Shown piece by piece: positions 3,001-62,014 of a stretch of 64,000 bases of DNA. The notes under the pieces were generated by a model, which saw only the letters and a list, made by a program, of their open reading frames with translations, made no database searches and was not told the DNA's origin. How positions within the stretch are numbered: the first letter of the stretch is position 1; every line of letters begins with the position of its first letter. The DNA comes from Fratercula arctica (Eukaryota; Chordata; Aves; Charadriiformes; Alcidae), in assembly GCA_947846985.1 (NCBI GenBank), contig CANTUZ010000025.1, positions 5,950,100-6,014,099 of the forward strand, read 5' to 3'. The position numbers and the translations under genes are program-made.

Positions 3001-3304
3001 TTGGGACAAGCATTTAGCACAAGCTACCTGGTTAGTTAACACCAGGGGATCCATCAATCGAGCTGGTCCTGCTCAATCAGACCTTTTACATACATTAGAA
3101 GGGTATAAAGTCCCTGTGGTGCATGAAAGGAATATGCTGGGGAAAGCTGTTTGGGTTTCTCCTACTTCAGGCAAAGGCAAACCCATTCGTGGGACTGTGT
3201 TTGCTCAAGGACCTGGATGTACTTGGTGGGTGATGCTGGAGAATGGAGAAGTTCAATGTGTGCCTCAAGGAAATTTAGCCCTCGGTGAAAATACTCAGTT
3301 CTGA
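1..3304 (+). pseudogene. pol: ERVL-type gag end and pro-pol, degenerate (copy 1)
   Basis: This is the remnant of an env-less, ERVL-like retroviral gag-pro-pol. In order it shows the gag end, a UAG, protease (DTGAQC near 232), reverse transcriptase (YIDD near 1056), RNase H (FTDGS near 1977) and integrase. The integrase has an HHCC finger with CETC near 2556 and the acidic triad in WQIDY (2647), ESDNG (2826) and SGKIEQ (2930). At least seven breaks are visible: TGA at 447-449 after a 1-bp deletion, then TGA at 962-964, 1181-1183 and near 1412, 1785, 2135 and 2616. No env or dUTPase follows. The 5' end lies outside the window. Two or three of the breaks are shared with the inverted copy 3 at 58668-62014. 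Non-functional. Confidence 0.9.
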
Positions 3305-35028: not shown

Positions 35029-35532
35029 TCCAATAATACAAACTGCTTACATACTTTTAACTTCAAATGTAAAGTATTTTAACTAAGTAGGACTCAAAAC
35101 TATATTCCTCACTGTACATTTACATTGTAATGGATAGAATGGAAGAAAAAATGGAATTATAGGATGTCATATAATACGGTTTAAAGAGCTGCATTTTAAA
35201 CTGTATATGATGATTGGTTTATACTAACAGGTGAAATATTGACATCTTAAGCTTCGAATACTACTTGTATTGTCAAAGTAGTCATTATTTAACATCATTT
35301 TTGTGAGATAATTATGTTTCTTTAGCTGTGGTAATATGCAAATAGCAAACTGGATGACAGCAAATGACTATGCAACGTTAAAAAAAAAAAAGAAAAGCCT
35401 AAAGCTAACATTTCCCACTTTAAAAAGAAATACAGTGGGAAGGGCCACGGGTCCAGAAAACAAAGTCACACTATGCTTTAAACAGAAATCTCACAGTCTG
35501 TGTTGCAAAATTATTACAGTAGAGATATGGAC

Positions 35533-35870
35533 AGGGCTTGCTCAGCAGAGTGCACAGCTGCGCCAACATCGCGCTGTCCCCCCACCAGTGAATAGTGGAT
35601 AGGGCTTGGTCAGTGGGGTGCACCGCTGCACCAAGATCACGCTGTCCCAAACCAGTTAACAGTGGATGGGGCTTGGTCAGTGGAGGGCACAGCTGCACCA
35701 AGATCGCGCTGTCCCCAAGCTGGTGAATAGTGGATAGGGCTTGGTTAGTGGGGTGCACAGCTGCACCAAGATCGCGCTGTCCCCCACACCAGTGAATAGT
35801 GAATGGGACTTGGTCAGTAGAGAGCATAGCTGCCAGAAGATTGTGCTGTCCCTGTATGGGGGTGGCCCAT
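35533..35870 (+). repeat. 68-bp tandem repeat in the proviral leader
   Basis: About five imperfect units of 67-69 bp, each with GGGCTTGGTCAGT, GCACAGCTGCACCAAGATCGCG and CTGTCCC. Unit spacing measured at the GGCTTG motif is 68, 67, 68 and 69. It lies between PBS and gag of the LTR-C provirus. Confidence 0.92.
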
Positions 35871-36102: not shown

Positions 36103-36356
36103 ATGTTTAGACGTAAGGACAAGGAGGAGGCGAGCGCACTCCAGGTAGATAGACCAGGGTAGACCATGGAGCCGCGGTGTACCTTATGGGATAAGGGGGA
36201 AACCTGCACTCATGTGGGGCCAGAACCCTGGGGGACCGTAGAACTGATGGAAGTCCTGAAATATTTGGGGGGGGGGGGTTCACCAGCTGACATGCTTACG
36301 CTCTAGGGAATGACTCGCCCATGCAGGGCGTATGGCTGGTTGTTTGCCTATAATAT
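36103..36356 (+). pseudogene. gag: gag 5' remnant of the LTR-C provirus
   Basis: An ATG at 36103 opens MFRRKDKEEASALQVDRPG and then hits TAG. A second short frame follows (MEPRCTLWDKGETC), ending at a G13 run (36261-36273). The position after the leader and the basic N-terminus suggest a Gag start, but no family motif is visible. The nested provirus interrupts it at 36356, and sequence resumes at 46144. Confidence 0.45.
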
Positions 36357-36897
36357 TGTTATAAATACTCCGAGTCCGTAAGGAGTTTAATAAATGTTTA
36401 TTAGATAAGAAAGCAAAAGCAGCGCTGGGCGGCCGGGGAGTCGCAGCTCCACAAAGGCTCGCAAATTCGAATGTCTCAAGCAACTCCTTTTATCTTCTCG
36501 GGGGTGGGTTTCAGCATCCTTAGTCTCCGCCAGGTGCCCCCCTATAGATTGCCGGGTCAGCTAACATATACAAGGATCTGCACCGAGACACAAGCTCAAC
36601 AAACAAATGGGCGTGAGAACGGCGTCACGGGCAGCCGCTCAAGGACATCAATCCTTCATGGCAACATTCCCCAGGTCTCATCCCTTCACCCAGATAAGGC
36701 AGTCATCCGTAGCAACAGCACATGGCAGTATATCATATCATGACATTTACTGCTAGTATAGCAATTAAGTCTTATCGCAAGACAGGATGTCCTGCTTCAC
36801 AGAGCAGGACACTTCCATTGCTTGTTTGGTGCAATAATTACCCTCCTTGTTCAGCTCTCCTGGTCATCAGCAAATTACCTGTTAGTCACCTATTGCA
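36357..36897 (-). mobile_element. Gammaretroviral 3' LTR
   Basis: Starts TGCAATAGGTGAC (36897) and ends TTTATAACA (36357) on -. TATA box GATAAAAGG near 36486-36494 and AATAAA at 36397-36402. Appears identical to 45599-46139. Confidence 0.95.
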
Positions 36898-36898
36898 A

Positions 36899-36912
36899 TT
36901 CCCCCTTTCTGT
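36899..36912 (-). promoter_or_regulatory. Polypurine tract
   Basis: AGAAAGGGGGAAT on -, directly before the 3' LTR, where plus-strand DNA synthesis is primed. Confidence 0.85.
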
Positions 36913-38765
36913 TATTTACCAGTAATTTGCTGATCAAATCTAGATAATACCTCATAGGCTCTATCCAATCTAGAGTTTTCATCCGGTATGATCTCCATTT
37001 CTAGTTGTGACTGCTTTATTACCATCAACTGTACTTTCTCTAACCTGTTTTTAATAAAGGTTACAAATTTATTAATGACACAGGGTCCAAAAGTCAGAGC
37101 CACTACTAGCATTATGAAGGGCCCTGCCAAGGTAGAAATTAAAGTAGTCAGCCACGGTGATTGGTTAAACCACGATTCATACCATGAGGACTGAGCTTCT
37201 CGTTCTCATTTTCGCTTCTCTAATCCTTCTCTTAGTTTGGCTAGCGAATCTCTCACTACCCCTGTATGGTCAGCATAAAAACAACACTCTTCGCCTAAGG
37301 CTGCACATAGTCCTCCGTTCTGCAAGAACAGGAGGTCCAATCCTCTTCGATTTTGTAAAACCACTTCAGACAATGAGGTTAGAGATTTTTCTAAGTAAGA
37401 AATAGACTTTTCTATTCGGGTCAGATCCTCGTCCACTGCCGCTCTCAAGGACAATAGACCTCGATGTTGCAGGGCTAGAGAAGCCGCGCCGGTGGCGGTT
37501 CCTGCGATCCCTAAGCCGACTAAAGTAGCTATAGTTATTGCGGATATCGGTTCCCTCTTTTCTATCCTATGTTTGGTACTTCCCCAATGTAAATACATAC
37601 TTTCTTCGCTATGAAAAAAGATCTTAGGTACCACAGTAACTTGCACACAAAAGTCTGAGTTATTTTTCAGAACGATCGTGGACAAACACGGAGTCAGTCC
37701 AGTTTTGGAACAAGCCCACCATGCCCCTGGACTAGGCAAGACCCATTTGATCCCAGTAGCAAAACTTTTGGTTTGGTTAGTACATAGACTTTGTCTCCCT
37801 CTTGGTACTGTCCCTACACACGAACCCTTTCCTCGGACTTGTTGCAGGGTGATTCCCGCAGTGCGTGCTTTCCAGTCACAGCCGGGACGTATGGTCCCAT
37901 TGGTGATATTAAAAGGGGATGACACTGCTATTCCCTCATAGAAAGGTGGTTCTGAGTTGTAGCACAGCCAACAAGAATTAGTAAGATTCGGGTTGGTCAT
38001 GTTTAGGGTCTGGTAAGCTGCTTTCATCATAGTCCATAAAGGTACTTGGGGTGGGTCCCATGCCTCATCGGTAGGAGTGGGATATGCTTCAGTGGGATAT
38101 GCTTCTGAGGAGTTAACGACCTCAGGCTTCCCCAATTGCCTGTTGAGGAGATCATTGGGCCCTACTACCACGGTCGGGGTTTGTTTAACCTCGCGTTTCT
38201 GAATAAATATTAGCCCTCCTTGGTCTGTCCCCGGTTGCGAGTATCGAAAACCCCAGGTTCGCCCTATGAGCCAGCCGGGATCATCTGGCTTATGGACTGC
38301 TAAATATATACTACCACTGCAGAGAGGTTTCCTATCCGAGGAGGCTCTTGTTCCCCACTGGCCATAATGACGAGTCCCTCCCATTCCTGTGGGTAGTCGG
38401 CACCCTATAGGGGCCCATTCGGTGCTTAAAAATTGATCTTTGACAATGGGGATCCAGGCTGAGGCAATTGTTTCACATCCCCAATAAGCACAATAATAAT
38501 GTCCTGGGGAGTTGCAATAGCCTCTTCCTGGGTTGGAGCTGGGGCACATGTAGTAATGGAATCGATCCTCACAACGTCCTTGAACTTGCTGTGCTGGTAC
38601 TAATTCACAAGGGGATGTCAGGAACCTTGGGGCCCCCGCTGTGATATTTGTCTTTAAAATAGAATATTCTCTACTTCCAAGTACCCATTCATAGGGTTGA
38701 TGGTATGGGTTTCCCCATGTTGTGGTGGCGAGGATTAAGATTCCCAGGAGGAGGCTAGTAGCCAT
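36912..38765 (-). pseudogene. env: Gammaretroviral env, one nonsense codon before the membrane anchor
   Basis: Surface and transmembrane envelope subunits. The likely ATG is at 38765 (MATSLLLGILIL signal peptide); the frame is open a few codons upstream without another ATG. SU has a CWLC motif (about residue 268), several N-glycosylation sites and a basic cleavage site ending EKR (about 407). TM has a hydrophobic fusion peptide, an immunosuppressive-like segment starting LQNRRGLD and a CX6CC motif (CAALGEECC). An in-frame TGA at 37206-37208 ends the 522-residue frame before the membrane span. The same frame then stays open to 36912, holding the membrane span and cytoplasmic tail. As it stands the product would lack its anchor. 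Confidence 0.93.
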
Positions 38766-39018: not shown

Positions 39019-39594
39019 TCACAGTCTACTAACTTTCCACAAAAATGTTCCTAATATTTTTGTCTGTCTAATCCCTCTTATATGCTTCATTAGCTTATAT
39101 AGATCCCACCAAATTAGGCTTAAACCCCAATGTTCGTTGTTTTCTATCACAAACCGTATATTCCTGCTAAAGTTATCTGGGTACCCCTCCGTGGTTGTCC
39201 AGTTCCGTTCCAACGTAGGATATAGATGTCGTTCTAGAGTCTCGTACTGATACCGATCCTGGCACATTGGACACACGCCTCTGTGAAAAAGCACTATACG
39301 ATTAGTTATATTTGTTCGTTTACACCTCCCACACTGATAAAACACCCAAAACCCACACGTGAGGGTTTTGCACTGGCAAACTCCTCTCAGTCTCTGTTCA
39401 GCTTTCCAGCTGCCCCAATAAGCTCTGGGATTATTAATTATCCCTTCGGTTATGAACAGTAGCTGGTCACTGTTCCTGGGGAGACCAGACCCCGTGACCT
39501 CTTTTTTTTTTTTTTTTTTTTTTTTTTCTTTCACCAACGGCGATAAAACCCTGTGCCACCGACTCTGCCTTCGTCTAAGGACTTCCGCTGGTCA
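39019..39594 (-). CDS. X2: cysteine-rich accessory frame between pol and env
   Basis: Open from just after a TGA near 39597 down to 39019, with no ATG near its start, so it would need splicing or another mode of initiation. A good acceptor-like GGTCTCCCCAG ends near 39476. Part of the upstream frame is a lysine run made by a 26-T tract (39502-39527). Downstream is a zinc-ribbon-like region: VCQC, then TCGFW, then CGRC and CPMC, and a C-terminal part rich in aromatic residues (WWDLYKLMKHIRG). No known family was recognised. It resembles X1 upstream. Gammaretroviruses normally have no gene here, so this is a candidate accessory gene. The frame is unbroken in this copy. Confidence 0.5.
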
Positions 39595-39709
39595 GAGATC
39601 CGGCCTTTCCATGTATCGGGGAATCCGTTACTATGGTTCCCACCCATCGGGGTCTTGGAATTGCCCCTGGGCGACCCTGATTGCACACTGCCTTAGCACC
39701 CGGTACCAA

Positions 39710-40162
39710 TCAATCAGACTCGTATACCTCCCACAATTCGGGCAGTAGTAATTCCCAGCCGCAAAAGAGCCGAACTATTTGGGCCTGGCCCCCATTTGCT
39801 CCAAGGTGTCTTCGGCAGCGCATGCAATTAGACTGCCTGTTAAAAGCTACACAAGACCAATGATCGCCGCAGTGACAACATTTACACACCACCCAACTTA
39901 AATGTCCGTGGAGAGGGTGTTTTAAACAAGGGATCGCCCCGACGGTCGAAGTAGGGGTTTCTGGTATCCCAGTTTCTACCTCACAACAAAGTGAGAGTGT
40001 CGTGGAGGTCTCTGTGATTCTATATACCCCAGCCCCACCAGTTTGTGGGGGTAAGCGCTCCCTGGACCAGGGTGCGGAGTATACTTTTCGGAGGGTATGA
40101 TCCGACTGCACCTGAAACCACCGGTAGAGGCTGCTTCGGACCCCTTCTTCTGAATTAGTCAT
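39710..40162 (-). CDS. X1: cysteine-rich accessory frame overlapping the pol stop
   Basis: The ATG at 40162-40160 overlaps the pol TGA (ATGA), so X1 follows pol directly. It is 150 residues long. The middle has dense cysteine and histidine residues: HGHLSWVVCKC, CHCGDHWSC, then CMRC. The last part loses the pattern, but another frame over 39715-39770 carries a CPNC pair followed by aromatic residues, as in X2, so X1 has probably suffered a frameshift near its end. No database family is recognised. A zinc-binding function is inferred only from the paired CXXC motifs. Confidence 0.5.
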   Translation of the reverse strand: MTNSEEGVRSSLYRWFQVQSDHTLRKVYSAPWSRERLPPQTGGAGVYRITETSTTLSLCCEVETGIPETPTSTVGAIPCLKHPLHGHLSWVVCKCCHCGDHWSCVAFNRQSNCMRCRRHLGANGGQAQIVRLFCGWELLLPELWEVYESD

Positions 40163-43100
40163 TCACTTAGTGGCTGTCGTTGTAGTCTTACACGGAGAGT
40201 TCCTGGTTCTGGCACCGCGGTCCACTTCTCTGGGGGAAGCGGTCCTTTAATACGGCTAGCATGGGTCCATCCCTTTTCCGCTGTCCGGACTGCCGTATCT
40301 GTTGTAAGCAAGACAACAAAGGGGCCTTCCCAACGTGGTGTCAGGGAAGTTTCTTTCCAGGTTTTGATTAGTACTTGGTCCCCAGGTTGAACGCGATGTA
40401 TAGAAACGTCTAAGGGAGGTCTCTGTACTACCAATCCTTTCTTTTGCAACTCTCGCCTCCTTCGTGTGAGTTCTAAAATATATTCTGTCAGAAGTTTGTC
40501 CTCAACTTTTGGATGCTCTATTAATAACCCAAAGTCATAGGGCATCCCATATAACATTTCAAAGGGGGAGATACCAGTATCCGTCCTTGGCTGGGTCCTG
40601 ATATACAACAGTGCTAATGGTAAGCACTTGACCCAATTCATTTTCGTCTCCACCATAAGTTTGGTTAGGTGTTTCTTTATCTCCCCGTTCATTCTCTCTA
40701 TTCTCCCAGAACTCTGTGGGTGCCAGGGGGTATGATATTCCCACTTCATACCAAGAAGCTCAGTAGTTTCTTTAATAATTTTAGACGTGAAATGTGGGCC
40801 TCGGTCCGAATCAATCACCGCAATGGTCCCATATCTTGGAATGATTTCCTCCAAGAGAATTTTAGTGACTGTTTTTGCGGTAGCTCTTACTACTGGGAAA
40901 GCTTCTACAAAGTGGGTGAGGTGGTCAACCAAGACTAATAAATACTGATATCTTCCTACCTTTGGCAATTCAGTAAAATCTACTTGTACTTTCTCGAACG
41001 GTCGTTTAGCCAATTCACGACCTCCTTGGACCTTTTCCCTAAGTTGTCGCTTGTTTATTTTATGGCAAGTTAAACAACCCTCTAGAGTCCTCTTTGCTAG
41101 GCCATAAATTCCGACGCAGGCATACTTTGTTTCAAACTGGTCTACTAACGCTTGAACGCCCCAGTGGGTTTTATGGTGTAATTTATTCAGTATTCCCCGT
41201 GCTAACCCCTTTGGAAGGATTTCTCTGCCGTCTGGTAACAGCCATCTATCGCCCTCTCTTTTTGCTCCAATTTGTTTTAGCTTGTCTAATTCTCGGAGGG
41301 TAAAGGTTTTTTCTAAGTTCAGTCTTTCAGGTTCCTCTCTCAAGGCCTGAACCATTAATAATGCCGCTCGTTTTGCTTCTGCATCGGCTATATTGTTTCC
41401 TCTTACCGTGGGAGTCAGTCCCCTTTGGTGTCCCCTTACATGTACTATAGCTATTCTCAGTGGACCCCTTAATGCTTTCAAAACTTCTAAGATTAGTTTC
41501 TCGTGGACTAATCCTTTCCCCTGGGTGTTGATTAGGCCTCTCTCCTCCCAGATTTTTCCAAAAGTATGTACTACCCCAAAGGCATACTTGGAATCAGTAT
41601 AAATAGTCCCTGCTTTATTTTCTAAGAGCTTTAATGCTCTTAACATAGCATATAACTCGCATGCTTGTGCGGACCAAGTTTTGTCCAATGGTCCTGATTC
41701 CTTTATCTGAAAGGTATGCCCATCTACAATAGCATATCCTGATTTTCTTTTTCCTTCCACTACTCGTGAAGAACTGTCTATAAATAATTTCTCCCCTTCC
41801 TCTAATTCCTCCTCTTCTAAATCTTCCCTTATCTTTGTCTGTAAATTTATTAGTTGGAGACAGTCATGTACTAAATCTTCTTTAGGCTCCCCATATAAAA
41901 ATTGAGCAGGGTTCTGAAGGGAGGTGGCTTCTATTTCTAATTTGGGGGAGTTAATTAAAATACCTTCATATTTTAGCAATCGACTGTCCGTGAGCCATTT
42001 ATCAGCTCGTTGTTGCAACACTCCTCGAATATTATGGGGAGTATATACTTTTAGTTCACCTCCTAAGGTGACTTTTCCAACTTCTTCCACTAATAATGCC
42101 GTGGCTACTATAGCTTGTAAGCAGGTGGGCCATCCACGACTTACAGGGTCCAGAATTTTAGAATAATAGCCCACCGGCTTCCTCTGTCCAGCCCATCCTT
42201 GGGTTAAAACCCCATAGGCTGTCCCATTATCTACATTGATAAAAAGTTGAAAGGGTTTGCGAATATCGGGTAAACTGAGAACAGGTGCTTCTACCAGATC
42301 TCTTTTTATGCTCTCCCATCGGTCCTCATCCTCAGGTAACCATTTTACCAACCCGTTTTTAGTTAATTTTTCGTACAAGAACTTTACTTTACTGCTGTAG
42401 TTTTCTATCCATTGTCGACAATACCCTAATAGCCCTAATAGTTGTCTTATTTGTCTTTTGTTAGTTGGTGCTGTTAGAGACAAAATGCCTTTTACTCTCT
42501 CGGGATCCAGCTTCTTATACCCTTTTATGAGCCAATGCCCTAAATATTTCACCTCTTCTTCAGTAAACTGCAATTTGGACTTTGAAACTTTCAACCCTTT
42601 AAGACCCAAAAAGTTCAATAATTTGATACTCTCATTTCTGACTTCTTCCTGAGTTTTTCCAGCAATCAATAAATCATCTATGTATTGTATTAAGACTAGT
42701 CCCTGACTCAGTTCATAAGATTCTAATAGCTGTTCCAGGGCTTGTCCAAACAAGTTCGGGGATTACGTAAATCCTTGGGGCAAAACAGTCCACCGTAATT
42801 GTTGTTTCCTATGGGTATTGGGGTTTTCCCATTCAAAGGCAAAATAGTCTCTACATTTCTCTTCTAAGGGACAGGCCCAGAAAGCATCCTTCAAATCTAT
42901 AACACTATACCATTTATAATCTGGGCTTAACTGGTTAAGGATAGTATGGGGGTTAGCCACCACAGGGAACCGGGTAATAGTTCGTTCATTTACCGCCCTT
43001 AGATCTTGTACTAAGCGATAAGACCCATCCGCCTTTTTTACGGGTAGTATAGGGGTATTGTGGGGAGACATACAGGGCTCCAAGAGTCCTTGTGTTAAAA

Positions 43101-43650
43101 GTCTCTCAATTACCGGTTGTAATCCTTCTCTCCCCTCTCTAGAAATGGGGTATTGTTTTATCCGGATGGGCTGGTCTGGGGTCTTTATGGAAACGGTGAT
43201 TGGCTTAATGTCTAGTTTTCCCACCGACTCTGGGCTAGACCAGGTTTCTGGATTGATCTTGGCTTCATCTTCTGCAGTTAACAAGCATAATCTGGCTATT
43301 AATTTTTCTGCTTTTACCTCTAGATTTATCCCTAAATCTACCATTAAGTCACGTCCCAAAAGGTTATATTCTGCTTCCGGAACTAATAAAAATGTCCCCA
43401 CCCCATACTTGTTGGGAGTTTCTATTGCTACATTCTTTATCAGGGGCACCTTAAAGGGTTCCCCCTTTGCACCAATTACTTGAAGTTTCTCTTTTGATTC
43501 TACACACCCAGATGGTAGTTTTTGGACTGTTGATCTTTCAGCACCCGAGTCCACAAGGAACTCGAATACTTCACGCTGAGGACCCAATTTCAGTTTTATC
43601 AAGGGCTCGGTGACTTTAAGGGTCCCCAGCAAATAGAGCCCCTGACCCCC
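40159..43650 (-). pseudogene. pol: Gammaretroviral pro-pol, one nonsense codon in RT
   Basis: Protease (LVDSGAERS), reverse transcriptase (LPQGF, QYIDDLL), RNase H (FIDSS, YTDSKYA) and integrase with a zinc finger (HH...CLTC) and the acidic triad in VQVDF, DSDRGPHF and GRIERMNG. It is translated in frame with gag across the UAG at 43651-43653. One TAA (42763-42765) just after LPQGF and before the YIDD box splits it into 42763-43650 and 40159-42762; no other break was seen. The C-terminal end overlaps the start of X1. Confidence 0.95.
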
Positions 43651-43653
43651 CTA
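43635..43653 (-). promoter_or_regulatory. gag-pol stop-codon readthrough site
   Basis: On - the gag stop reads UAG GGG GGU CAG GGG, in frame with pro-pol. A UAG followed by a purine-rich GGxGGUCAGGG context is the gammaretroviral readthrough signal, completed by a downstream pseudoknot. Confidence 0.8.
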
Positions 43654-44811
43654 ATCTTCCTTAAAAATCTCCTCATCTTGTATTCTCTTTCGGCAGTTCC
43701 TCTGTATATGTCCCTTCTTGCGACAATAAAAACACTCCACATTTCGTGGACTAAATCCTCTCCTTCTTAATTCTACTGGGTCTTTCCGAGAACTTTCCTT
43801 CTTAGCCTGATTCTGTCCTTCCCTTACAGCTGCCACCAGAATTCTGGCTTGTTTCTTCTGGTTTTCTTCTTCTCTTCTCACATACACCTTCTGAGCCTCT
43901 CTTAGTAACTCATCTAACCCTCTTTCCTGCCAATCTTCTATCTTCTCTAACTTCTTCCTTATGTCAGTCCAAGATTTAGCTACAAATTGAGTTTTCAATA
44001 GGGCTTGACCCACCTGACTATCGGGGTCTAACCCAGAATACAGTTGTAAACTCTTTCTCAATCTTTCTAACCATTCGGTGGGGGTTTCATCTCTTTTCTG
44101 TTGTTCATTAAAAGCCTTATTAATATTTTTTCCTCTGGGTACAGAATCTCTAATCCCCTGAATTATCATATCTCGGAGATCAACCATATTATTTCTATGT
44201 GCTGGGTCTTGGTTGTCCCAATTGGGCTGCTGTAAGGGCCATTTTACATCCCCGGCGGGACCATGCTGATGTCTTTGATCCCAGTGCCTCATACCGGCAG
44301 TTCTGATCATTCCTCGTTCTTCGTTCGTGAATAATATTCTTAAAATGGACTCCATTTCGTCCCAAGTGTAGATATTAGGTCCGAGGAATTGATCCAAATG
44401 CTCTGCTACCCCTAATGGGTCCTCTAACAGATGTCCCATTTCTTTCTTAAATTCTCTCACATCCCCGGAGCTGAGAGGTACAGACACAAACCCCACTCCA
44501 GGCTGTGGTCCCCCCATAGCAGTCTCTCTTAAGGGGTATAATAAACTTTCCTCTCTCCTTTCCCTAGTTCGACTTCTAGTTATTCTTTGATTGGGAAGAG
44601 GGGTCTCCTCCCCAGATTCCGTGGGGACTGTTGGAGGGAGATTTGGCTCAGGACCCGGTGGAGGGGGAGCATAGGGTGGGGGAGACGTTGGAGGTTCGCC
44701 TACATCCCACTTCCTCCTTTTATCAGCTTTCTTTTCCTTTAATGAAAACAAGTTCGTAACTTGTGTTATGCCTTGGATCCAAAAAAAAAGGCGTACTCGC
44801 TTTCCTCCTTA
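43651..44811 (-). pseudogene. gag: Gammaretroviral gag, p12-CA-NC part
   Basis: Open from after TAATAA near 44812. It contains a PPPY late-domain motif (PPPYAPPPP), capsid with a major homology region (ETPTEWLERLRKS), a charged helix rich in R, E and K, and a single CCHC zinc knuckle (CFYCRKKGHIQRNC) as in gammaretroviral nucleocapsid. It ends at the UAG readthrough codon. No ATG starts it. It is in a different frame from the matrix segment upstream, so Gag is split in this copy. Confidence 0.93.
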
Positions 44812-44819
44812 TTAAATGG

Positions 44820-45095
44820 TCATTTGTTGTTAACATATATGTTTAATTGTTGGCATATCCAATCCTCAGACGACCCATAAATTGGCCAGCGTAGGTCTTT
44901 TCTTATCTGTTTTCCTCCCCATATCTCCATACAATAATGGACCATTTTCTCCCTAGGTTTCTCTTTCCGAGAAGGGGAACTATCCCAATATTGGATCATT
45001 AAGCCTAACGGGCTACCTGGGGGTATATTAGGAAGCCTACCCCCACCCCGTTTCTCCTGTATGGAACCAGAAGTTTTACCGTTCTTCTGTCCCAT
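44820..45095 (-). pseudogene. gag: Gammaretroviral gag, matrix part
   Basis: ATG at 45095 gives MGQKNGKTSG, with glycine at position 2 as required for myristoylation. The frame is also open upstream without an ATG. Terminated by a TGA at 44820-44822; the capsid part continues in another frame. An A9 run at about 44779-44787 between the two parts is a likely indel site. Confidence 0.85.
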
Positions 45096-45128
45096 CTTCC
45101 GAAAGTGCCTTCTTTCTTTTCCACTCAC

Positions 45129-45576
45129 TCACTTCCCTCCGTTCGTGGCCCACGCCCTCGCGGACTATGGGAACCGCACTACTGGGAGGTCCACACTCAC
45201 TTCGTCTGGTGGATTACTAAATCCGATGGACGTCTCATTCACTCACACTTCGGGTATCCAATCCCCGACCGAACGGAACCACAATATACTTACCCCAGAG
45301 TCTTCATTCGATACATCGAACGGGAACCACTATTCCGGACTCACTCTGGAGTCTTCGTTCGGCTTTTCCGAACGGGATCCGCTACATACTCACTTCCGAG
45401 TCTTCGTCCGGGTCTTCGTGCACAAAGATTACGGGGAAACAAAACTGCAGTATCTCTTTCTTTTTGCTTTCTCACCTCCGTTCGGAAAATCCAGGTTAGC
45501 TAGCCCGGGACTCCCTCCGGGACCATCCAAAGATGGGGCGCCTTCCCAGAGTTGAGTTCCGAAATCAGCTGTCTGG
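45129..45576 (-). promoter_or_regulatory. Gammaretroviral leader with repeated hairpins
   Basis: Untranslated leader between PBS and gag. It contains recurring CGAAGACTC-type motifs and short inverted repeats (TTCGAT-AC-ATCGAA near 45307; GTTCGG-CTTTT-CCGAAC near 45356). Position and structure suit the packaging and dimerisation signal. Confidence 0.55.
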
Positions 45577-45594
45577 ATCCGAGTCACGGCACCA
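45577..45594 (-). promoter_or_regulatory. Primer-binding site, tRNA-His
   Basis: On - TGGTGCCGTGACTCGGAT, four bases from the LTR end, a perfect match to the tRNA-His type of site used by ERV-H elements. Confidence 0.9.
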
Positions 45595-45598
45595 AAAT

Positions 45599-46139
45599 TG
45601 TTATAAATACTCCGAGTCCGTAAGGAGTTTAATAAATGTTTATTAGATAAGAAAGCAAAAGCAGCGCTGGGCGGCCGGGGAGTCGCAGCTCCACAAAGGC
45701 TCGCAAATTCGAATGTCTCAAGCAACTCCTTTTATCTTCTCGGGGGTGGGTTTCAGCATCCTTAGTCTCCGCCAGGTGCCCCCCTATAGATTGCCGGGTC
45801 AGCTAACATATACAAGGATCTGCACCGAGACACAAGCTCAACAAACAAATGGGCGTGAGAACGGCGTCACGGGCAGCCGCTCAAGGACATCAATCCTTCA
45901 TGGCAACATTCCCCAGGTCTCATCCCTTCACCCAGATAAGGCAGTCATCCGTAGCAACAGCACATGGCAGTATATCATATCATGACATTTACTGCTAGTA
46001 TAGCAATTAAGTCTTATCGCAAGACAGGATGTCCTGCTTCACAGAGCAGGACACTTCCATTGCTTGTTTGGTGCAATAATTACCCTCCTTGTTCAGCTCT
46101 CCTGGTCATCAGCAAATTACCTGTTAGTCACCTATTGCA
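45599..46139 (-). mobile_element. Gammaretroviral 5' LTR
   Basis: 541 bp, apparently identical to 36357-36897, with the same TATA and AATAAA positions. Confidence 0.95.
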
Positions 46140-46143
46140 ATAT

Positions 46144-52611: not shown

Positions 52612-52835
52612 CATGATCCAGCTTTGCTAAGAGCGGCTGTCTGATACGCAACTACATTGTTGTACTCCCTTCTTGTTATCTTCTTCTTTGAAGGTCAGGT
52701 TCTCATGGATACGCACATAGTTTCTGCAACAACAGTACTGAGTCCTTTTTTTCTTGGCACGTATACTGGGTTTGGTTCAGCTAGTAATTTTCCGTCGTGT
52801 CTCACTTGGACCATCCTCTATTATCTCTTACACAA
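52612..52835 (-). mobile_element. LTR-C fragment inside copy 2 pol
   Basis: Corresponds to LTR-C positions 48853-49074 on -. Its 5' terminus (TGTGTAAGAGATAATAG) joins pol at 52835/52836, as in an integration joint. Its other side is truncated at CAAAGCTGGATCATG and joins an earlier part of pol. Confidence 0.85.
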
Positions 52836-55818
52836 CTACGGGGACTTAATCTCCATCTACAGTACGTGGAAGTTTTGATTGGGCAGGGCCAGCCGGATTG
52901 GTAGATCCCCTGGTGTTAAGTAGCCAGATAGCTTTTGCTAAACATGTATCCCAAAGTTTTAAAGTCCCACCACCCATTGCTCTCAGTGTAGTTTTTAACA
53001 GTCCATTGTACCGTTCTATCTTCCCAGAGGCTGGTGCGTGACAGGGGATGTGATATACCCATTCAGTACCATGCTCTTTGGCCCAGGTGTCTATGAGGCT
53101 GTTTCAGAAATGAGTCCCATTGTCCGACTCACTTCTCTCTGGGGTACCATGTCGCCACAGGACTTGCCTTTCAAGGCCCAGGATAGTGTTCCTGGAGGTG
53201 GCATGGGGCACAGGGTATGTTTCCAGCCATCCAGTGGTTGCTTCCTCCATTGTGAGCACATGGCGCTTGCCTTGACGGGCTCGTGGCAGTGTGATATAAT
53301 CAATCTGCCAGGCCTCCCCATATTTATATTTCAACCATCGTCCTCCATACCAAAGAGGCTTCAAACGCTTGGCTTGCTTGATTGCAGCACGTGTCTCACA
53401 TTCATGGATGACCTGTGCAATAGTGTCCATGGTCAAGTCCACCCCTCGGTCACGAGCCCATCTATATGTCACATCTCTTCCTTGATGGCCTGAGGTCTCA
53501 TGGGCCCACCGAGCTATGAATAGTTCACCCTTATGTTGCCAATCCAGATCCACCTGAGCCACTCCAATCCTAGCAGCCTGATCCACCTGCTGGTTGTTCT
53601 GATGTTCCTCCGTGGCCCGATTCTTCGGTACGTGGGCATCTACGTGGCGTACTTTCACAACCAGATTCTCTATCCGGGCAGCAATATCTTGCCATAGTTC
53701 AGCAGCCCAGATGGGTTTGCCTCTGCGCTGCCAGTTGCCCTGCTTCCACTGCTGTAACCATCCCCACAGAGCATTTGCCACCATCCATGAGGCAGTGTAG
53801 AGATAAAGTACTGGCCATTTTTCTCGCTCGGCAATGTCCAAAGCCAGCTGAATGGCTTTCACCTCTGCAAACTGGCTCGATTCACCTTGTCCTTCACTGG
53901 CTTCTGCAACTTGTCGTGTAGGACTCCACACAGCAGCCTTCCACTTTCGATGCTTTCCCACAATCCGGCAGGACCCATCAGTGAACAGGGCATATTGCTT
54001 CTCATTTTCTGGCAGTTTATTATATGGTAGGGCCTCTTCCGCACGCGTCACCTCCTCCTCTGGTGACATTCCAAAATCCTTGCCTTCTGGCCAGTCCATG
54101 ATCACTTCCAGAATTCCTGGGCGACTGGGGTTTCCCATTCGAGTTCGCTGTGTGATCAGTGCAATCCACTTACTCCATGTAGCATCAGTTGCATGATGTG
54201 TGGTGGGGACCCTTTCTTTGAACATCCAACCCAGCACCGGCAGTCGAGGTGCTAAGAGGAGCTGCGCTTCTGTACCAACCACCTCCGAAGCAGCTCGAAC
54301 CCCTTCATATGCTGCCACTATCTCCTTTTCTGTTGGAGTGTAGCGGGCTTTTGATCCTCTGTATCCCCGACTCCAAAACCCTAGGGGTCGACCCCGGGTC
54401 TCCCCTGGTGCCTTCTGCCAGAGGCTCCAGGTAGGGCCATTCTCCCCAGCTGCAGTGCAGAGCACATTTTTCACATCTTGTCCTGCCCGGACTGGCCCCA
54501 GGGCCACTGCATGGACTATTTCCTGTTTGATTTGTTCAAAAGCTTGTCGTTGCTCAGGACCCCATTTGAAATCGTTCTTCTTCCGGGTTACTTGATACAG
54601 AGGGCTTACAATCAGACTGTAATCTGGGATATGCATCCTCCAAAAACCCACAATGCCTAAGAAAGCTTGTGTTTCCTTTTTGCTAGTTGGTGGAGACATA
54701 GCTGCTATTTTGTTGATCACATCCATTGGGGTCTGATGGCGTCCATCTTGCCATTTTATGCCTAAGAACTGGATCTCCTGTGCAGGTCCCTTGACCTTCC
54801 TTCGTTTTATGGCAAAACCAGCTTTCAGAAGGATAAGGACTATTTTATCCCCTTTCTCAAAAACTTCTTCGGCTGTGTTTCCCCATACGATGATGTCATC
54901 AATGTATTGCAGATGTTCTGGAGCTCCACCCTGTTCCAGTGCAGTCTGGATCAGTCCATGGCAAATGGTGGGGCTGTGTTTCCACCCCTGGGGCAGTCGA
55001 TTCCAGGTGTACTGGATGCCCCTCCAAGTGAAAGCAAACTGTGGCCTGCACTCTGCTGCCAAAGGGATTGAGAAGAATGCATTCGCTATATCAATCGTGG
55101 CATACCACTTGGCTGCCTTGGACTCCAGTTCATACTGCAGTTCTAGCATGTCCGGCACAGCAGCGCTCAGCGGTGGCGTGACTTCATTCAGGCCACGTTA
55201 GTCCACAGTTAGCCTCCACTCTCCATTGGATTTTCGCACCGGACATATGGGACTGTTAAAGGGTGAGCGAGTCTTGCTGATCACTCCTTGAACCTCTAGT
55301 TGACGAATCAGCTTATGGATGGGAATCAGAGAGTCTCGGTTAGTGCGATATTGCCGCCGATGCACCGTTGTGGTAGCAATCGGCACCTGCTGTTCTTTGA
55401 CCCTCAACAACCCCACAACAGAAGAGTCCTCCGAGAGACCAGGCAAGGCAGACAACTGTTTAAATTCCTCCGTCTCCAAGGCAGCTATGCCAAAGGCCCA
55501 CCGATACCCCTTTGGGTCCTTAAAATACCCTCTCCTGAGGTAATCTATACCAAGGATGCATGGAGCCTCTGGGCCAGTCACAATGGGATGCTTTTGCCAC
55601 TCATTCCCAGTTAGGCTCACTTCAGCCTCCAATACAGTCAACTCTTGGGATTCCCCTGTGACCCCAGAAATACAAATGGGTTCTGCCCCTCTATAGCTTG
55701 ATGGTATTAGGGTGCACTGTGCTCCTGTGTCCACTAGAGCCTTATACTCCTGCGGGTCTGATGTGCCAGGCCATTGAATCCACACTGTCCAATAAACCCG
55801 GTTGTCCCTTTCCTCCAC
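52836..55818 (-). pseudogene. pol: ERVL pro-pol, copy 2 main part
   Basis: Protease (DTGAQC), reverse transcriptase (LPQGWKHSPT, YIDDIIVWG), RNase H (FTDGSCR), integrase zinc finger and the first two catalytic aspartates (WQIDYI, ESDNGTHF). Breaks: TAA at 55198-55200 where copies 1 and 3 have tyrosine (VDYRG), and a stop after NGTHF at 53104-53106. The integrase finger reads CETR where copy 1 reads CETC, so one zinc ligand is lost. It is in the same frame as gag, after a UAG. Confidence 0.93.
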
Positions 55819-55839
55819 CTGGCTGGAGGCAGGGCCCCT

Positions 55840-57579
55840 CTAATACTGGTCATGGTATCCGGTACTCACTTCTTGCAGAAATGACTTGGAGGTTCCTTCA
55901 AGAGGATCAGAAGCAAGATCAGGCCTTCTGCTCTGTCTGGGGAACTGCCCACTGGAAACTGGGGCGGCACTTTTCCTGGAGGGATCCCCTTTTGTGGTTG
56001 TCCTTCCTTGCAACTCCTGTACCCGTGTCCACAGGATCCAAGTAGGTTGTCCATCCCACTTCCTCATGTCCTCTCCATGGTCTCGCAGGTAGAACCACAG
56101 GGTGCCTCGTGGTGTGTACCCTCTGTAGACTCTCTCTCGAGTGGCGAAATGCCTGCTCCTAATAGCTGAGATGCTGGCCCGTACAGGTGGGGAGTAGGAC
56201 ATATTCTCTTCAAGTTGCTGAAACTTCCGGGACAGTTTCTCCACAGCTGAGACAAAGGGGGAAGAGAGGCTTTCTTCATATCGCCGGAGCTGGCCAGCCA
56301 CCTCATCCACCGTTGGTCCTTCTTCACCTTTCCATTCCATTACTGCCAGTGAGTTGGCATATGACGATGGTGCGCTCCATACAAACTTCCGCCACATGGG
56401 CCTTGTGCAGTGCACCTCATCAGGGTCCGTGGGCAAGTCTGTGTTGTCCAAGTCATAATAAATCATCTCCCGCACAGCTAATTCTCTCAGGTACTGGATA
56501 CCTCTTTCCATGGTGGTCCACTTGCTTGGGTGACATACAACATCTTCACTGAAGGGGTACCTCTCCCTCACGCCTGACAGGAGTCGTTTCCAGAGGCTGA
56601 GGGCTTGGGTCTTCTTTCCAATTGCCTTGTCAATGCTGCCTTCCCTAGACAGGGATCCCAACGGCCTGGCTTCCCTACCCTCTAATTCCAGGCTACTGGC
56701 CCCGTTATCCCAACACCGAAGCAGCCAGGTGACAATGTGCTCGCCTGAAAGTCGGCTAAAATCTTTTCGCATATCCCGCAGCTCACTCAGGGATAGGGAT
56801 CGGGTAATTAACTCTGGTTCTGCCTCTTCCTCCTGTCCTTGTGATGGCCCTGGTTCATCGTCATCTCTTACTAAGCGAACCGTTTTCTTTGTGTACTTCT
56901 TCTTTTGTATGGGGGCAACGGATACTGGCATGGGTTGGTTCCCTGGTTCAGCAGCAGTGGCTGTCACCGGGGTTGGAGTAGCTGCAGTGGCTGCCACAGG
57001 GGTTGCAGTAGCCGCAGTGCCTGTCGCAGGGGTCGCAGTAGCCGCAGTGCCTGTCGCAGGGGTCGCAGTAGCCGCAGTGCCTGTCGCAGGGGTCGCAGTA
57101 GCCGCAGTGCCTGTCGCAGCAGCGCCTGCCACAGGGGCCGCAGCAGCCGCAGCACCTGCCGCAGGGGCCGCAGCACCTGCTGGTCTGGTCTCTGTCTCTT
57201 TCTTCTGAGGGTGCTGCATAGCACTGAGCAGTGCCTGGTAGATACTAGCCAGGGCCCAGCACAGTGCGGTGAGTTGTGCCTCTCTAGAATAGCCACAGCA
57301 TTTTCCCTTCAGATATTCTACTATTCTATCAGGGTCCTGTAATTGTTCAGGGGTGAAGTCCCAGACCATTGGAGGTGAGAAGTTCTCTAAGTACCTGCCC
57401 ATGTTCTCCCACATGCCATGCCACCCCTGACTGTCCAGCCTCGGAGCAGATCTCTGGGTGGTAGTCTTAAATAGTTGTTTAACCCTAAACGAGACCTGGA
57501 ACATATTCAGCAGACATAACACTAGGAGCATGCTGGTTTGAGCATCCCAAGGATATTCAAAATTCTCAGAAGCCGTCAC
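55840..57579 (-). CDS. gag: ERVL Gag, 579-codon open frame
   Basis: A long open frame ending at TAG (55840-55842). It begins at a GTG at 57579 with no in-frame ATG nearby. The middle part has an alanine/threonine/proline-rich tandem repeat (ATGTAATATP unit) made by a 30-bp minisatellite. No zinc knuckle is present, as is usual for ERVL Gag. The C-terminal half is rich in arginine and aromatic residues. The real start is probably an ATG at 57647-57645 in another frame, across a G7 run (57627-57633), so this copy may carry a 1-base indel there. Confidence 0.8.
   Translation of the reverse strand: MTASENFEYPWDAQTSMLLVLCLLNMFQVSFRVKQLFKTTTQRSAPRLDSQGWHGMWENMGRYLENFSPPMVWDFTPEQLQDPDRIVEYLKGKCCGYSREAQLTALCWALASIYQALLSAMQHPQKKETETRPAGAAAPAAGAAAAAAPVAGAAATGTAATATPATGTAATATPATGTAATATPATGTAATATPVAATAATPTPVTATAAEPGNQPMPVSVAPIQKKKYTKKTVRLVRDDDEPGPSQGQEEEAEPELITRSLSLSELRDMRKDFSRLSGEHIVTWLLRCWDNGASSLELEGREARPLGSLSREGSIDKAIGKKTQALSLWKRLLSGVRERYPFSEDVVCHPSKWTTMERGIQYLRELAVREMIYYDLDNTDLPTDPDEVHCTRPMWRKFVWSAPSSYANSLAVMEWKGEEGPTVDEVAGQLRRYEESLSSPFVSAVEKLSRKFQQLEENMSYSPPVRASISAIRSRHFATRERVYRGYTPRGTLWFYLRDHGEDMRKWDGQPTWILWTRVQELQGRTTTKGDPSRKSAAPVSSGQFPRQSRRPDLASDPLEGTSKSFLQEVSTGYHDQY
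56960..57185 (-). repeat. 30-bp in-frame minisatellite in gag
   Basis: Four nearly identical 30-bp units (GGGGTCGCAGTAGCCGCAG type on +) at about 57000-57115, with more degenerate GCAGC-rich units on both sides. The unit is a multiple of three, so the Gag frame is kept. Confidence 0.9.
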
Positions 57580-57896
57580 ACCTGATCCAAAGGAGAAAAG
57601 GGAGGCAAAAGAGCTGGGGAAAGTGTCCCCCCCTCCATTTCCCCCATAGACTGGGTGTAATTATTAATAAATTCTGAGAGGTGGTGCCCAATGTACGGAC
57701 AGGACAGCAATACCACATAAACACCCCAAAATAACCGTCTAACAAGTGATGTTGTCATATCATAAGCCGATACTGCACAGGACAGCAAAATGATAATCCT
57801 CATCCCCCTCCCAGAAGTAACAAATATCATCCCAGGGAGTGCATAAAACACACAGGAATTTACATAACACAGCCATGAGAACAAACCAAGCAACAT
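57576..57896 (-). CDS. Hydrophobic frame directly upstream of ERVL gag
   Basis: ATG at 57896, 106 codons, ending three bases into the gag frame. Contains three hydrophobic stretches (MLLGLFSWLCYVNSCVFYAL, IIILLSCAVSAY, FWGVYVVLLSC), then MGEMEGG, which may be the natural Gag start in this frame. Either the hydrophobic part is chance leader sequence, or it is an N-terminal membrane extension of Gag. Low certainty. Confidence 0.35.
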   Translation of the reverse strand: MLLGLFSWLCYVNSCVFYALPGMIFVTSGRGMRIIILLSCAVSAYDMTTSLVRRLFWGVYVVLLSCPYIGHHLSEFINNYTQSMGEMEGGTLSPALLPPFSPLDQV

Positions 57897-59975: not shown

Positions 59976-59980
59976 AACAT

Positions 59981-61557
59981 CCATCCCAGTACTAGTAATC
60001 AGGGTGCCAGGAGGAGCTGTGCTTCGGTACCAATTACCTCTGAAGCAGCTCTAACTCCTTCATATGCTGCCAAGATTTCTCTCTCAGTTGGAGTATAGCT
60101 GGCCTCAGACCCTTTGTATCCTTGAGTCCAAAACCCTAGAGGCCAACCTCAGGACTCCCCTGGTGCTTTCTGCCAGAGGCTCCAGGTAGGGCCATTGTCC
60201 TCAGCTGCAGTGTAGAGCACATTTTTAATGTCCCATCCTGTTTGGACCGGCCCAAGGGCTACTGCATGCACAATCTCTCGTTTAATTTGCTCAAAGGCCT
60301 GTCCTTGCTCAGGACCCCACATAAACTGATTTTTTTCCGGGTCACTTGATATAGAGGGCTTACAATCAGACTGTAATCTGGGATATGCATCCTCCAAAAA
60401 CCCACAATGCCAAAGAAAGACTGTGTTTCCTTTTTGTTACTACACGGGGATATAGCTGTTATTTTGTTAATCACGTCTATTGGGATCTGACAACGCCCAT
60501 CTTGCCATTTAATTCCCAAGAACTGGATGTCTCATGCAGGTCCCTTGACCTTACCTCTTTTTATGGCAAAACCTGCTTTCAAAAGAATCTTGATTGCTTT
60601 CTTACCTTTCTTGAAAACTTCCTCTGCTGTATTACCCCACACAATGATGTCATCAGTGTATTGCAGATATCCTTCTCCAGTGCAGTCTGGATCAGTCCAT
60701 GGCAAAGAGTAGGGCTGTGTTTCCACCCCTGGGGCAGTCAATTTCAGGTGTACTGGATGCCTCCCCAGGTGAAAGGAAACTGTGGCCTTCACTCTGCTGC
60801 TAAAGGAATAGAGAAGAATGCATTAGCAATGTCAATTGTGGCATACCACTTGGTTGTCTCTGACTCCAGTTCATACTGCAGTTCTAGCATGTCTGGCACA
60901 GCAGCACTCAGTGGTGGTGTGACTTCATTTAGGCCACGATAGTCTACTGTTAGCCGCCAGTCTCCATCAGACTTTCGCACTGACCATATAGGAATGTTAA
61001 AGGGTGAGCAAGTCTTGCTGATCACTCCTTGGGTCTCCAGCTGACGAATCAGGTTCTGGATGGGAATCAGGGAATCTCGGTTAGTGTGATACTGTCGCCG
61101 ATGCACTGTGGCAGTACCAATTGGCACCTGCTGTTCTTTAACCTTCAGCAGTCCCACCACAGAAGGGTCATCTGAAAGGCCAGGTAAGGTAGACAGCTGT
61201 GTAATGTCTTCAGTCTCTACAGCTGCCATACCAAAAGCCCACCAATATCCTTTCAGTCTTTGAAATACCCTTTCTTGAGGTAGTCTATGCCAAGGATGCA
61301 CGGAGCATCTGGGCCAGTGATAATGGGGTGCTTCTCCCATTTATTCCCATTCAGGCTCACTTCAGCCTCCAGTACAGTCAGTTCTTGAGACCCACCTGTC
61401 ACTCCAAAAATAGTCACAGATTCTGTCCCTTTATGATTCAAAGGCAATAGGGTGCACTGTGCACCAGTGTCCACCAGGGCTTTACGCTTTTGTGGCTCTA
61501 ATGTGCCAGGCCATCGAATCCACACAGTCCAATAAACTTGGCTATCCCTCTCTTACT
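59981..61557 (-). pseudogene. pol: ERVL pro-pol copy 3, protease and RT part
   Basis: Near-duplicate of copy 1 in the opposite orientation: protease (DTGAQC), RT start (WRLTVDYRGL), YTDDIIVWG (first residue of the box followed by T instead of I). It shares with copy 1 the frame-breaking deletion (TGA 61253-61255) and the TGAs at 60738-60740 and 60532-60534. Non-functional. Confidence 0.9.
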
Positions 61558-62014
61558 CCTGGCTGGAGGCAGGGCACCTCTAATGTCTATAATTAGTAAA
61601 TGAGTTTCTACCTGGACCAGAGAACCACCCCCTGCGGACTGGAGCAGCAGTCCTCCTGGAATAATTTGTTCTTCTATCTGCATTACCTTGCAACTCACTT
61701 ACTCGTGCCTGTAGGGCCGAGGTAGGTTTTTTATCCCACTTACTCATGTCCTCTCCATAGTCACAGAGGCAAAACCACAGGATATTTCATAGTGTGTTCT
61801 GTTTCCTCTGAGTTGGTCTCGTAGGAGGGTGTCTTCTCCTAATGGCTGCAACACGGGTCCACACAGGGGAAGAATAGGATCTCTCCTCCATCCTAGATAG
61901 TTTATCAAACAGTTTATCAAACAATTTCTCATTTTTCTCAATTGTTTTATCAGTCAACCTTTCCACAGCTGCTACAGTGAGGGGACAAGAGAGACTGTCT
62001 TCATACTGTCGCAA
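61558..62014 (-). pseudogene. gag: ERVL gag C-terminal remnant, copy 3
   Basis: Frames matching the C-terminal third of copy 2 Gag (RQYEDSLSCP, SSPVWTRVAAIRRRH) and its end, with a UAG before the protease. It stops at 62014, where a CR1 fragment begins. Confidence 0.8.

What the first reader, a model, noticed from the sequence alone, without database searches (positions are those of the whole stretch)
39019..40162. Two cysteine-rich extra frames between pol and env of a gammaretroviral provirus
Gammaretroviruses are simple retroviruses, and env normally overlaps or closely follows pol. Here about 1.4 kb separates them. It contains X1 (150 codons, its ATG overlapping the pol stop as ATGA) and X2 (open about 190 codons, no ATG). 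Both have paired CXXC or CXC motifs of zinc-ribbon type. Their position, the tight ATGA overlap and open frames in a recent insertion suggest real accessory genes. Function is unknown.
Basis: partly seen in the sequence, partly recalled or inferred. Interest (0 to 1): 0.88.

Follow-up and report, generated by a model that had tools for sequence, protein, structure and literature searches.

The report
Two extra frames in bird retrovirus
A young retrovirus fossil in what is most likely a bird genome carries an unusual extra stretch between two of its standard genes, with one probable and one possible small cysteine-rich protein gene of unknown kind, which would matter because this branch of retroviruses is thought to do largely without such extras.

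Summary
A young class I (gamma-type) provirus lies on the minus strand (LTRs 36352-36899 and 45594-46141, 1 mismatch in 548). Its pol ends where relatives' pol ends, yet env starts 1393 nt later. That interval holds X1 (150 codons, ATGA overlap with the pol stop) and X2 (190 codons, no useful ATG).

Both frames are longer than chance: 14 of 10000 shuffles reach 190 codons; a second frame of 148 came in 0 of 10000 (at 150, 1 of 2000). Both carry CxxC-x16-CxxC.

They are not equally supported. X1 has the codon usage of this virus's genes (0 of 2000 shuffles reach it on synonymous codons, 11 on all codons); X2 does not (1489 of 2000). Neither has a relative in a protein search that found 319 relatives of the integrase. 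X1 and X2 do not resemble each other beyond cysteine spacing. The window's only A/T run of 14 or more, A26, lies between X1 and the X2 core, a possible recombination scar.

Best reading: X1 a probable accessory gene, X2 a possible one. Function, conservation and expression are unshown; the own-genome search did not complete.

The parts
36352..36899 (-). 3' LTR of the provirus (TG..CA trimmed 36357-36897; flanked by ATAT)
   Evidence: 548-nt direct repeat, 99.8%; end sequences
45594..46141 (-). 5' LTR (TG..CA trimmed 45599-46139; flanked by ATAT: 4-bp target duplication)
45577..45594 (-). primer binding site just inside the 5' LTR, tRNA-His type
   Evidence: sequence; the tRNA-His assignment is recalled, not tested
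44820..45128 (-). start of gag (matrix, MGQ..), in another frame than the rest of gag: frame broken near 44808-44822
   Evidence: reading as matrix is by position and recalled
43651..44808 (-). rest of gag: capsid (Gag_p30, E 1e-26) and one CCHC knuckle (E 0.0026, just below cut-off); stop, then pro in the same frame
42763..43650 (-). protease and start of reverse transcriptase, ending at an in-frame stop 42763-42765
40159..42762 (-). rest of pol up to integrase; natural end as in relatives
39710..40162 (-). X1: 150-codon frame, ATG overlapping the pol stop; CxxC-x16-CxxC at residues 93-116; codon usage like the viral genes
39578..39709 (-). continuation of X1's frame after its stop (44 codons), weakly gene-like codon usage
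   Evidence: 35 (synonymous) and 46 (all codons) of 2000 shuffles as high
39502..39527 (-). A26 run on the sense strand between X1 and the X2 cysteine core; only A/T run of 14 or more in the window; it lies inside the X2 open frame
39019..39591 (-). X2: 190-codon frame without upstream ATG; CxxC-x16-CxxC at residues 87-110
   Evidence: codon usage does not support it
37206..38765 (-). env (TLV_coat, E 7e-98; CX6CC motif), with an in-frame stop at 37206-37208; the frame is open again below it

Best explanation
The interval is an extra block in the parental gamma-type virus that carried at least one true accessory gene, X1, and possibly a second, X2. SHOWN: a young provirus whose pol ends normally, an extra 1393 nt before env, two unexpectedly long sense frames, each with the same CxxC-x16-CxxC quartet; X1 with the codon usage of the virus. 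INFERRED: the proteins bind zinc and act as small regulators or adaptors (binding nucleic acid or a host protein, as cysteine-rich accessory proteins of other viruses do). INFERRED: they would be made from spliced messages; X2, lacking a start codon, would need an upstream AUG brought by splicing (one acceptor-like site among many lies at 39476, inside the X2 frame just below the A26 run; crude score).
For: Frame lengths: longest frame >=190 in 14 of 10000 and second frame >=148 in 0 of 10000 dinucleotide shuffles (earlier run 1 of 2000 each). X1 codon score (frame 0 minus mean of the other two, synonymous codons only) 0.194: within the range of 30 windows of this virus's genes (min 0.090, median 0.204; these windows were also the training set) and above all 60 out-of-frame windows; 0 of 2000 shuffles and 2 of 924 host-flank windows as high; on all codons 11 of 2000 and 10 of 924; without the pol-overlap end 1 and 7 of 2000. 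CxxC-x16-CxxC in both frames; a pattern scan for CxxC-x10..30-CxxC in six frames of the interval gave just these two. X2 matches zinc-binding Pfam profiles weakly (IS91 zinc domain E 4e-4, IFT121 zinc finger E 2e-3, both below Pfam cut-offs). pol end natural: 39 of 120 relatives align to within 20 residues of its end, and 38 of these 39 end within -6 to +15 residues.
Against: No relative of X1 (0 at E<=10, 12 candidates) or X2 (0 at E<=0.001, 31 candidates) in the protein database although it holds 319 integrase relatives, up to 91% identical; 0 relatives in viral contigs. X2's codon usage is not gene-like: 1489 of 2000 shuffles and 683 of 924 host windows reach it. G+C is flat over codon positions in both frames, unlike pol. 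X2 has no start codon; X1's ATG has T at -3 (weak context; recalled rule, sequence). X1 matches no Pfam or NCBIfam family at E<=10. AlphaFold without alignment gives no usable fold (mean pLDDT 40.8 for X1, 42.5 for the X2 core). No expression data.
Confidence: 0.5

Rival explanations
1. The interval is a non-coding insert or spacer (for example an RNA-processing or leader region for env) and the open frames are chance, helped by base composition.
For: No protein relatives; X2 codon usage at background; X2 lacks a start; flat G+C over codon positions in both X1 and X2.
Against: Frame lengths and the two equal quartets are rare in shuffles; X1 codon usage. RNA folding is not unusual (z -0.01 and -1.15, 20 shuffles each) and no Rfam family matches at E<=1, so there is no positive sign of an RNA element.
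Confidence: 0.3
2. X1 with the stretch behind it is a captured host messenger RNA: the A26 run marks the copied poly(A) tail where recombination rejoined the virus.
For: A26 is the only A/T run of 14 or more in 64 kb; it begins 182 nt below the X1 stop. G+C is 0.52-0.55 in the three 200-nt blocks from 40159 to 39560 against 0.41-0.47 in the four pol blocks from 41159 to 40360. Capture between pol and env has precedent: KIT-ligand in CrocERV29 (PMC4299795, passages read). That retroviral capture can leave poly(A) at the junction is recalled.
Against: No AATAAA before the run (sequence printed). No protein resembles X1 in a search whose sources include NCBI and UniRef bird proteins. X1 shares the codon usage of the virus. 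The G+C rise begins inside the end of pol (block 40359-40160 is 0.54). The purine-rich edges also allow simple slippage.
Confidence: 0.1
3. X1 and X2 are the remains of one accessory gene, or two halves of a spliced one, split by frame changes and the A run in this copy.
For: X1 has a start, X2 none; X1's frame stays gene-like for 44 codons past its stop (35 of 2000 shuffles as high); a CPNC knuckle lies in a further piece, 39634-39774. gag, pol and env of this copy each carry at least one break too.
Against: X1 and X2 differ in codon statistics and each has its own complete quartet. No copy to compare.
Confidence: 0.15

Closest known systems
Simple gammaretroviruses and class I ERVs
   Same: Gag_p30 and TLV_coat Env, gag and pol in one frame parted by a stop, one CCHC knuckle (weak match), 4-bp target duplication, tRNA-His type primer site as recalled for HERV-H
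   Different: 1393 nt with two long frames lie between pol and env; [quoted passage not shown]
Central accessory region of lentiviruses (vif, vpr, tat; recalled, partly named in PMC5512871)
   Same: Position between pol and env; small frames
   Different: No direct comparison was run; the searches of X1 and X2 named no lentiviral protein; Gag and Env are of the gamma type
acc3 and acc4 of fish foamy-like ERVs (PMC5512871, passages read)
   Same: Unexplained frames between pol and env without known domains
   Different: Frames of 465 and 334 codons, foamy-like virus, Lys primer site, found in several fish lineages
CrocERV29 KIT-ligand capture (PMC4299795, passages read)
   Same: Extra frame between pol and env of an ERV without loss of viral genes
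   Different: There a recognisable host gene with signs of purifying selection; here no host relative found

Membership tests
Gammaretrovirus-like (class I) ERV | Gag p30 capsid and TLV-type Env | tested here: met
   Gag_p30 E 1e-26, TLV_coat E 7e-98
Gammaretrovirus-like (class I) ERV | gag and pol in the same frame, parted by one stop | tested here: met
   ORFs 43651-44808 and 42763-43650 abut in one frame
Gammaretrovirus-like (class I) ERV | 4-bp target duplication, TG..CA LTRs | tested here: met
   ATAT on both sides
Gammaretrovirus-like (class I) ERV | Usual simple layout, env overlapping or adjoining pol (typical rather than strictly defining) | tested here: not met
   1393 nt between pol stop and env ATG
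Retroviral accessory gene | Conserved reading frame across relatives (purifying selection) | not testable with these tools
   No related DNA found; the genome search not answered
Retroviral accessory gene | Coding signal in the sequence itself | tested here: inconclusive
   Met for X1, not met for X2
Zinc ribbon protein | Two CxxC knuckles at ribbon-like spacing | tested here: met
   CxxC-x16-CxxC in both
Zinc ribbon protein | Match to a zinc-ribbon profile above cut-off, or ribbon fold | tested here: not met
   X2 only below cut-off, X1 none; models of low confidence say nothing. So neither is filed as a member
Host gene captured by a retrovirus | Recognisable host relative | tested here: not met
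   No match in the protein searches; Pfam gives only sub-threshold zinc domains for X2

The most novel reading that the evidence does not exclude
A lineage of complex gamma-type retroviruses circulated recently in birds, with a lentivirus-like central region between pol and env that encodes two zinc-ribbon regulators, perhaps ancient duplicates that keep only the CxxC-x16-CxxC spacing.
Probability: 0.28. Interest if true: 0.85.

Novelty: new variant of a known kind. Interest (0 to 1): 0.6.

Why it matters
Accessory genes are held to be a property of complex retroviruses. A recent bird provirus of the simple branch with such a region would show that this branch can become complex, give a new family of small viral regulators to test, and offer a dated case of accessory-gene birth. 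In the listings of ten paper searches ([quoted passage not shown] papers outside that library were not searched.

Tried and rejected
X1 and X2 as detectable relatives of each other: not supported. BLASTP finds nothing; the Smith-Waterman score is matched by 1053 of 2000 shuffles, 1244 of 2000 with cysteines kept; with the four cysteines anchored only 2 of 42 other residues agree and 901 of 5000 shuffles do as well. Equal spacing is the only link.

X1 or X2 as duplicated pieces of gag, pol or env: no match better than E 2.7. Other copies in the window: none. Known RNA element: none; unusual folding: none. Solved structures by sequence: two X2 hits at E 0.45 and 0.6, none for X1. The structure models were too poor to search with, so no fold search was made. 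The bacterial promoter and terminator scan has no bearing on an animal genome.

Reading on of X1 into the CPNC piece 39634-39774 in another frame: not supported, the codon score there is negative.

The first codon-usage script had the matrix piece in the wrong frame and is superseded. An earlier count gave the RT stop three bases off; 42763-42765 is right.

The splice-site scan used a crude home-made score; acceptor-like sites are many and none is singled out.

Full report
The provirus. Two 548-nt copies, 36352-36899 and 45594-46141, differ at one position. Trimmed to TG..CA they are flanked by ATAT on both sides, a 4-bp duplication. The element is on the minus strand. gag carries Gag_p30, env carries TLV_coat, and gag and pro-pol share a frame parted by one stop. 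Of 319 relatives of the integrase piece 120 are listed; those that bear a species name are birds apart from one shark entry (P0117), the closest named one being Glareola pratincola at 91% over 81% of the query. The host is therefore most likely a bird; CR1-like open frames in the window (family recalled) fit. The copy is defective: gag changes frame near 44808-44822, RT has a stop at 42763-42765, env has a stop at 37206-37208.

The interval. pol ends as its relatives do: 39 of 120 relatives align to within 20 residues of the end; 38 of these end within -6 to +15 residues, one runs 57 further. So the 1393 nt between pol stop and env ATG are extra, not lost pol. X1 (39713-40162) starts in ATGA at the pol stop. 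X2 (39022-39591) has no Met before codon 168.

More than chance? In 10000 dinucleotide shuffles of the interval the longest frame reached 190 codons 14 times and the second longest reached 148 never. A smaller run gave 1 of 2000 for 190 and 1 of 2000 for a second frame of 150. With the A run shortened in the script the longest frame is still 183.

Codon usage. A model trained on the separate pieces of gag, pol and env scores X1 at 0.194 (synonymous codons only), inside the range of 30 windows of the viral genes (which also trained it) and above all 60 out-of-frame windows; 0 of 2000 shuffles and 2 of 924 host-flank windows reach it; with the all-codon score 11 of 2000 and 10 of 924; leaving out the 12 nt at the pol end 1 and 7 of 2000. 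X2's core scores -0.045, reached by 1489 of 2000 shuffles and 683 of 924 host windows. So X1 looks like a gene of this virus and X2 does not. Against X1: its G+C is flat over codon positions, unlike pol. The 924 host windows are six frames of half-overlapping stretches and include repeats.

Cysteines. Both frames hold CxxC-x16-CxxC (X1 93-116; X2 87-110). In residue shuffles CxxC-x14..18-CxxC appears in 116 of 10000 for X1 and 7 of 10000 for the X2 core. A scan of six frames of the interval for CxxC-x10..30-CxxC gave these two only. The motif was chosen after seeing it. Beyond the cysteines X1 and X2 are not alike, so duplication is possible but not shown.

Relatives. X2: 31 candidates, none at E<=0.001. 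X1: 12 candidates, none at E<=10. The same database gave 319 relatives of the integrase piece, so it holds this kind of virus; but small unnamed frames may not be predicted as proteins, and the search needs shared 5-residue words, so a fast-evolving gene can be missed. Viral contigs gave none for X2, X1 and integrase, prokaryote contigs none for integrase; these collections are not expected to hold bird genomes. The own-genome search did not answer in nine tries. Hence conservation is untested.

The A26 run (39502-39527) is the only A or T run of 14 or more in the window. It sits between X1 and the X2 core, inside the X2 open frame. It could be a copied poly(A) tail from host mRNA capture, but no AATAAA precedes it (sequence) and no host relative was found. 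Slippage in a purine-rich tract is as likely.

Mechanism. I think X1, and less surely X2, are small zinc-binding regulators or adaptors made from spliced messages. Zinc binding rests on spacing and on weak profile matches for X2; regulation is inference from the habits of accessory proteins in other retroviruses. I put 0.5 on at least X1 being a true gene of the parental virus, about 0.25 on the regulator reading in particular.

Literature. Accessory frames between pol and env are known in lentiviruses and in fish foamy-like ERVs (PMC5512871, passages); a captured KIT-ligand sits there in a crocodilian ERV (PMC4299795, abstract and passages). OVEX1 of chicken has no obvious accessory frames (PMC2717909, abstract and passages). 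Snakehead retrovirus has several small frames and a 3' ORF whose product had minimal effect on replication (PMC12193657, passages): a caution against reading function into a frame. Jern and others note that unknown accessory genes are hard to recognise and their absence hard to ascertain (PMC1224870, passages). One study of bird ERVs that I wanted was not held.

Noticed in passing
52835-57660 (and inverted partner 118-3120): Second LTR-type element (by its pol-like translation, not searched) with a 606-codon frame and pol-like frames abutting in one frame; 81% like an inverted partial copy at the window's left end. 59976-61701 and 1-1740 are a further inverted pair, 92%.
   Followed up: no
39502-39527: T26 on the plus strand is the only A/T homopolymer of 14 or more in 64 kb.
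   Followed up: partly
35510-35852: Five tandem copies of a 71-nt unit, spacing 67-69, the others 68-89% like the reference copy, outside the 3' LTR.
   Followed up: no
39578-39709: X1's frame keeps weakly gene-like codon usage for 44 codons past its stop.
   Followed up: partly
39634-39774: CPNC knuckle in an open 47-codon piece in the pol/X2 frame, below-threshold zinc-ribbon matches (E 0.04-0.06).
   Followed up: partly
45288-45417: Three imperfect 30-nt repeats, spacing 51 and 49, in the viral leader before gag.
   Followed up: no
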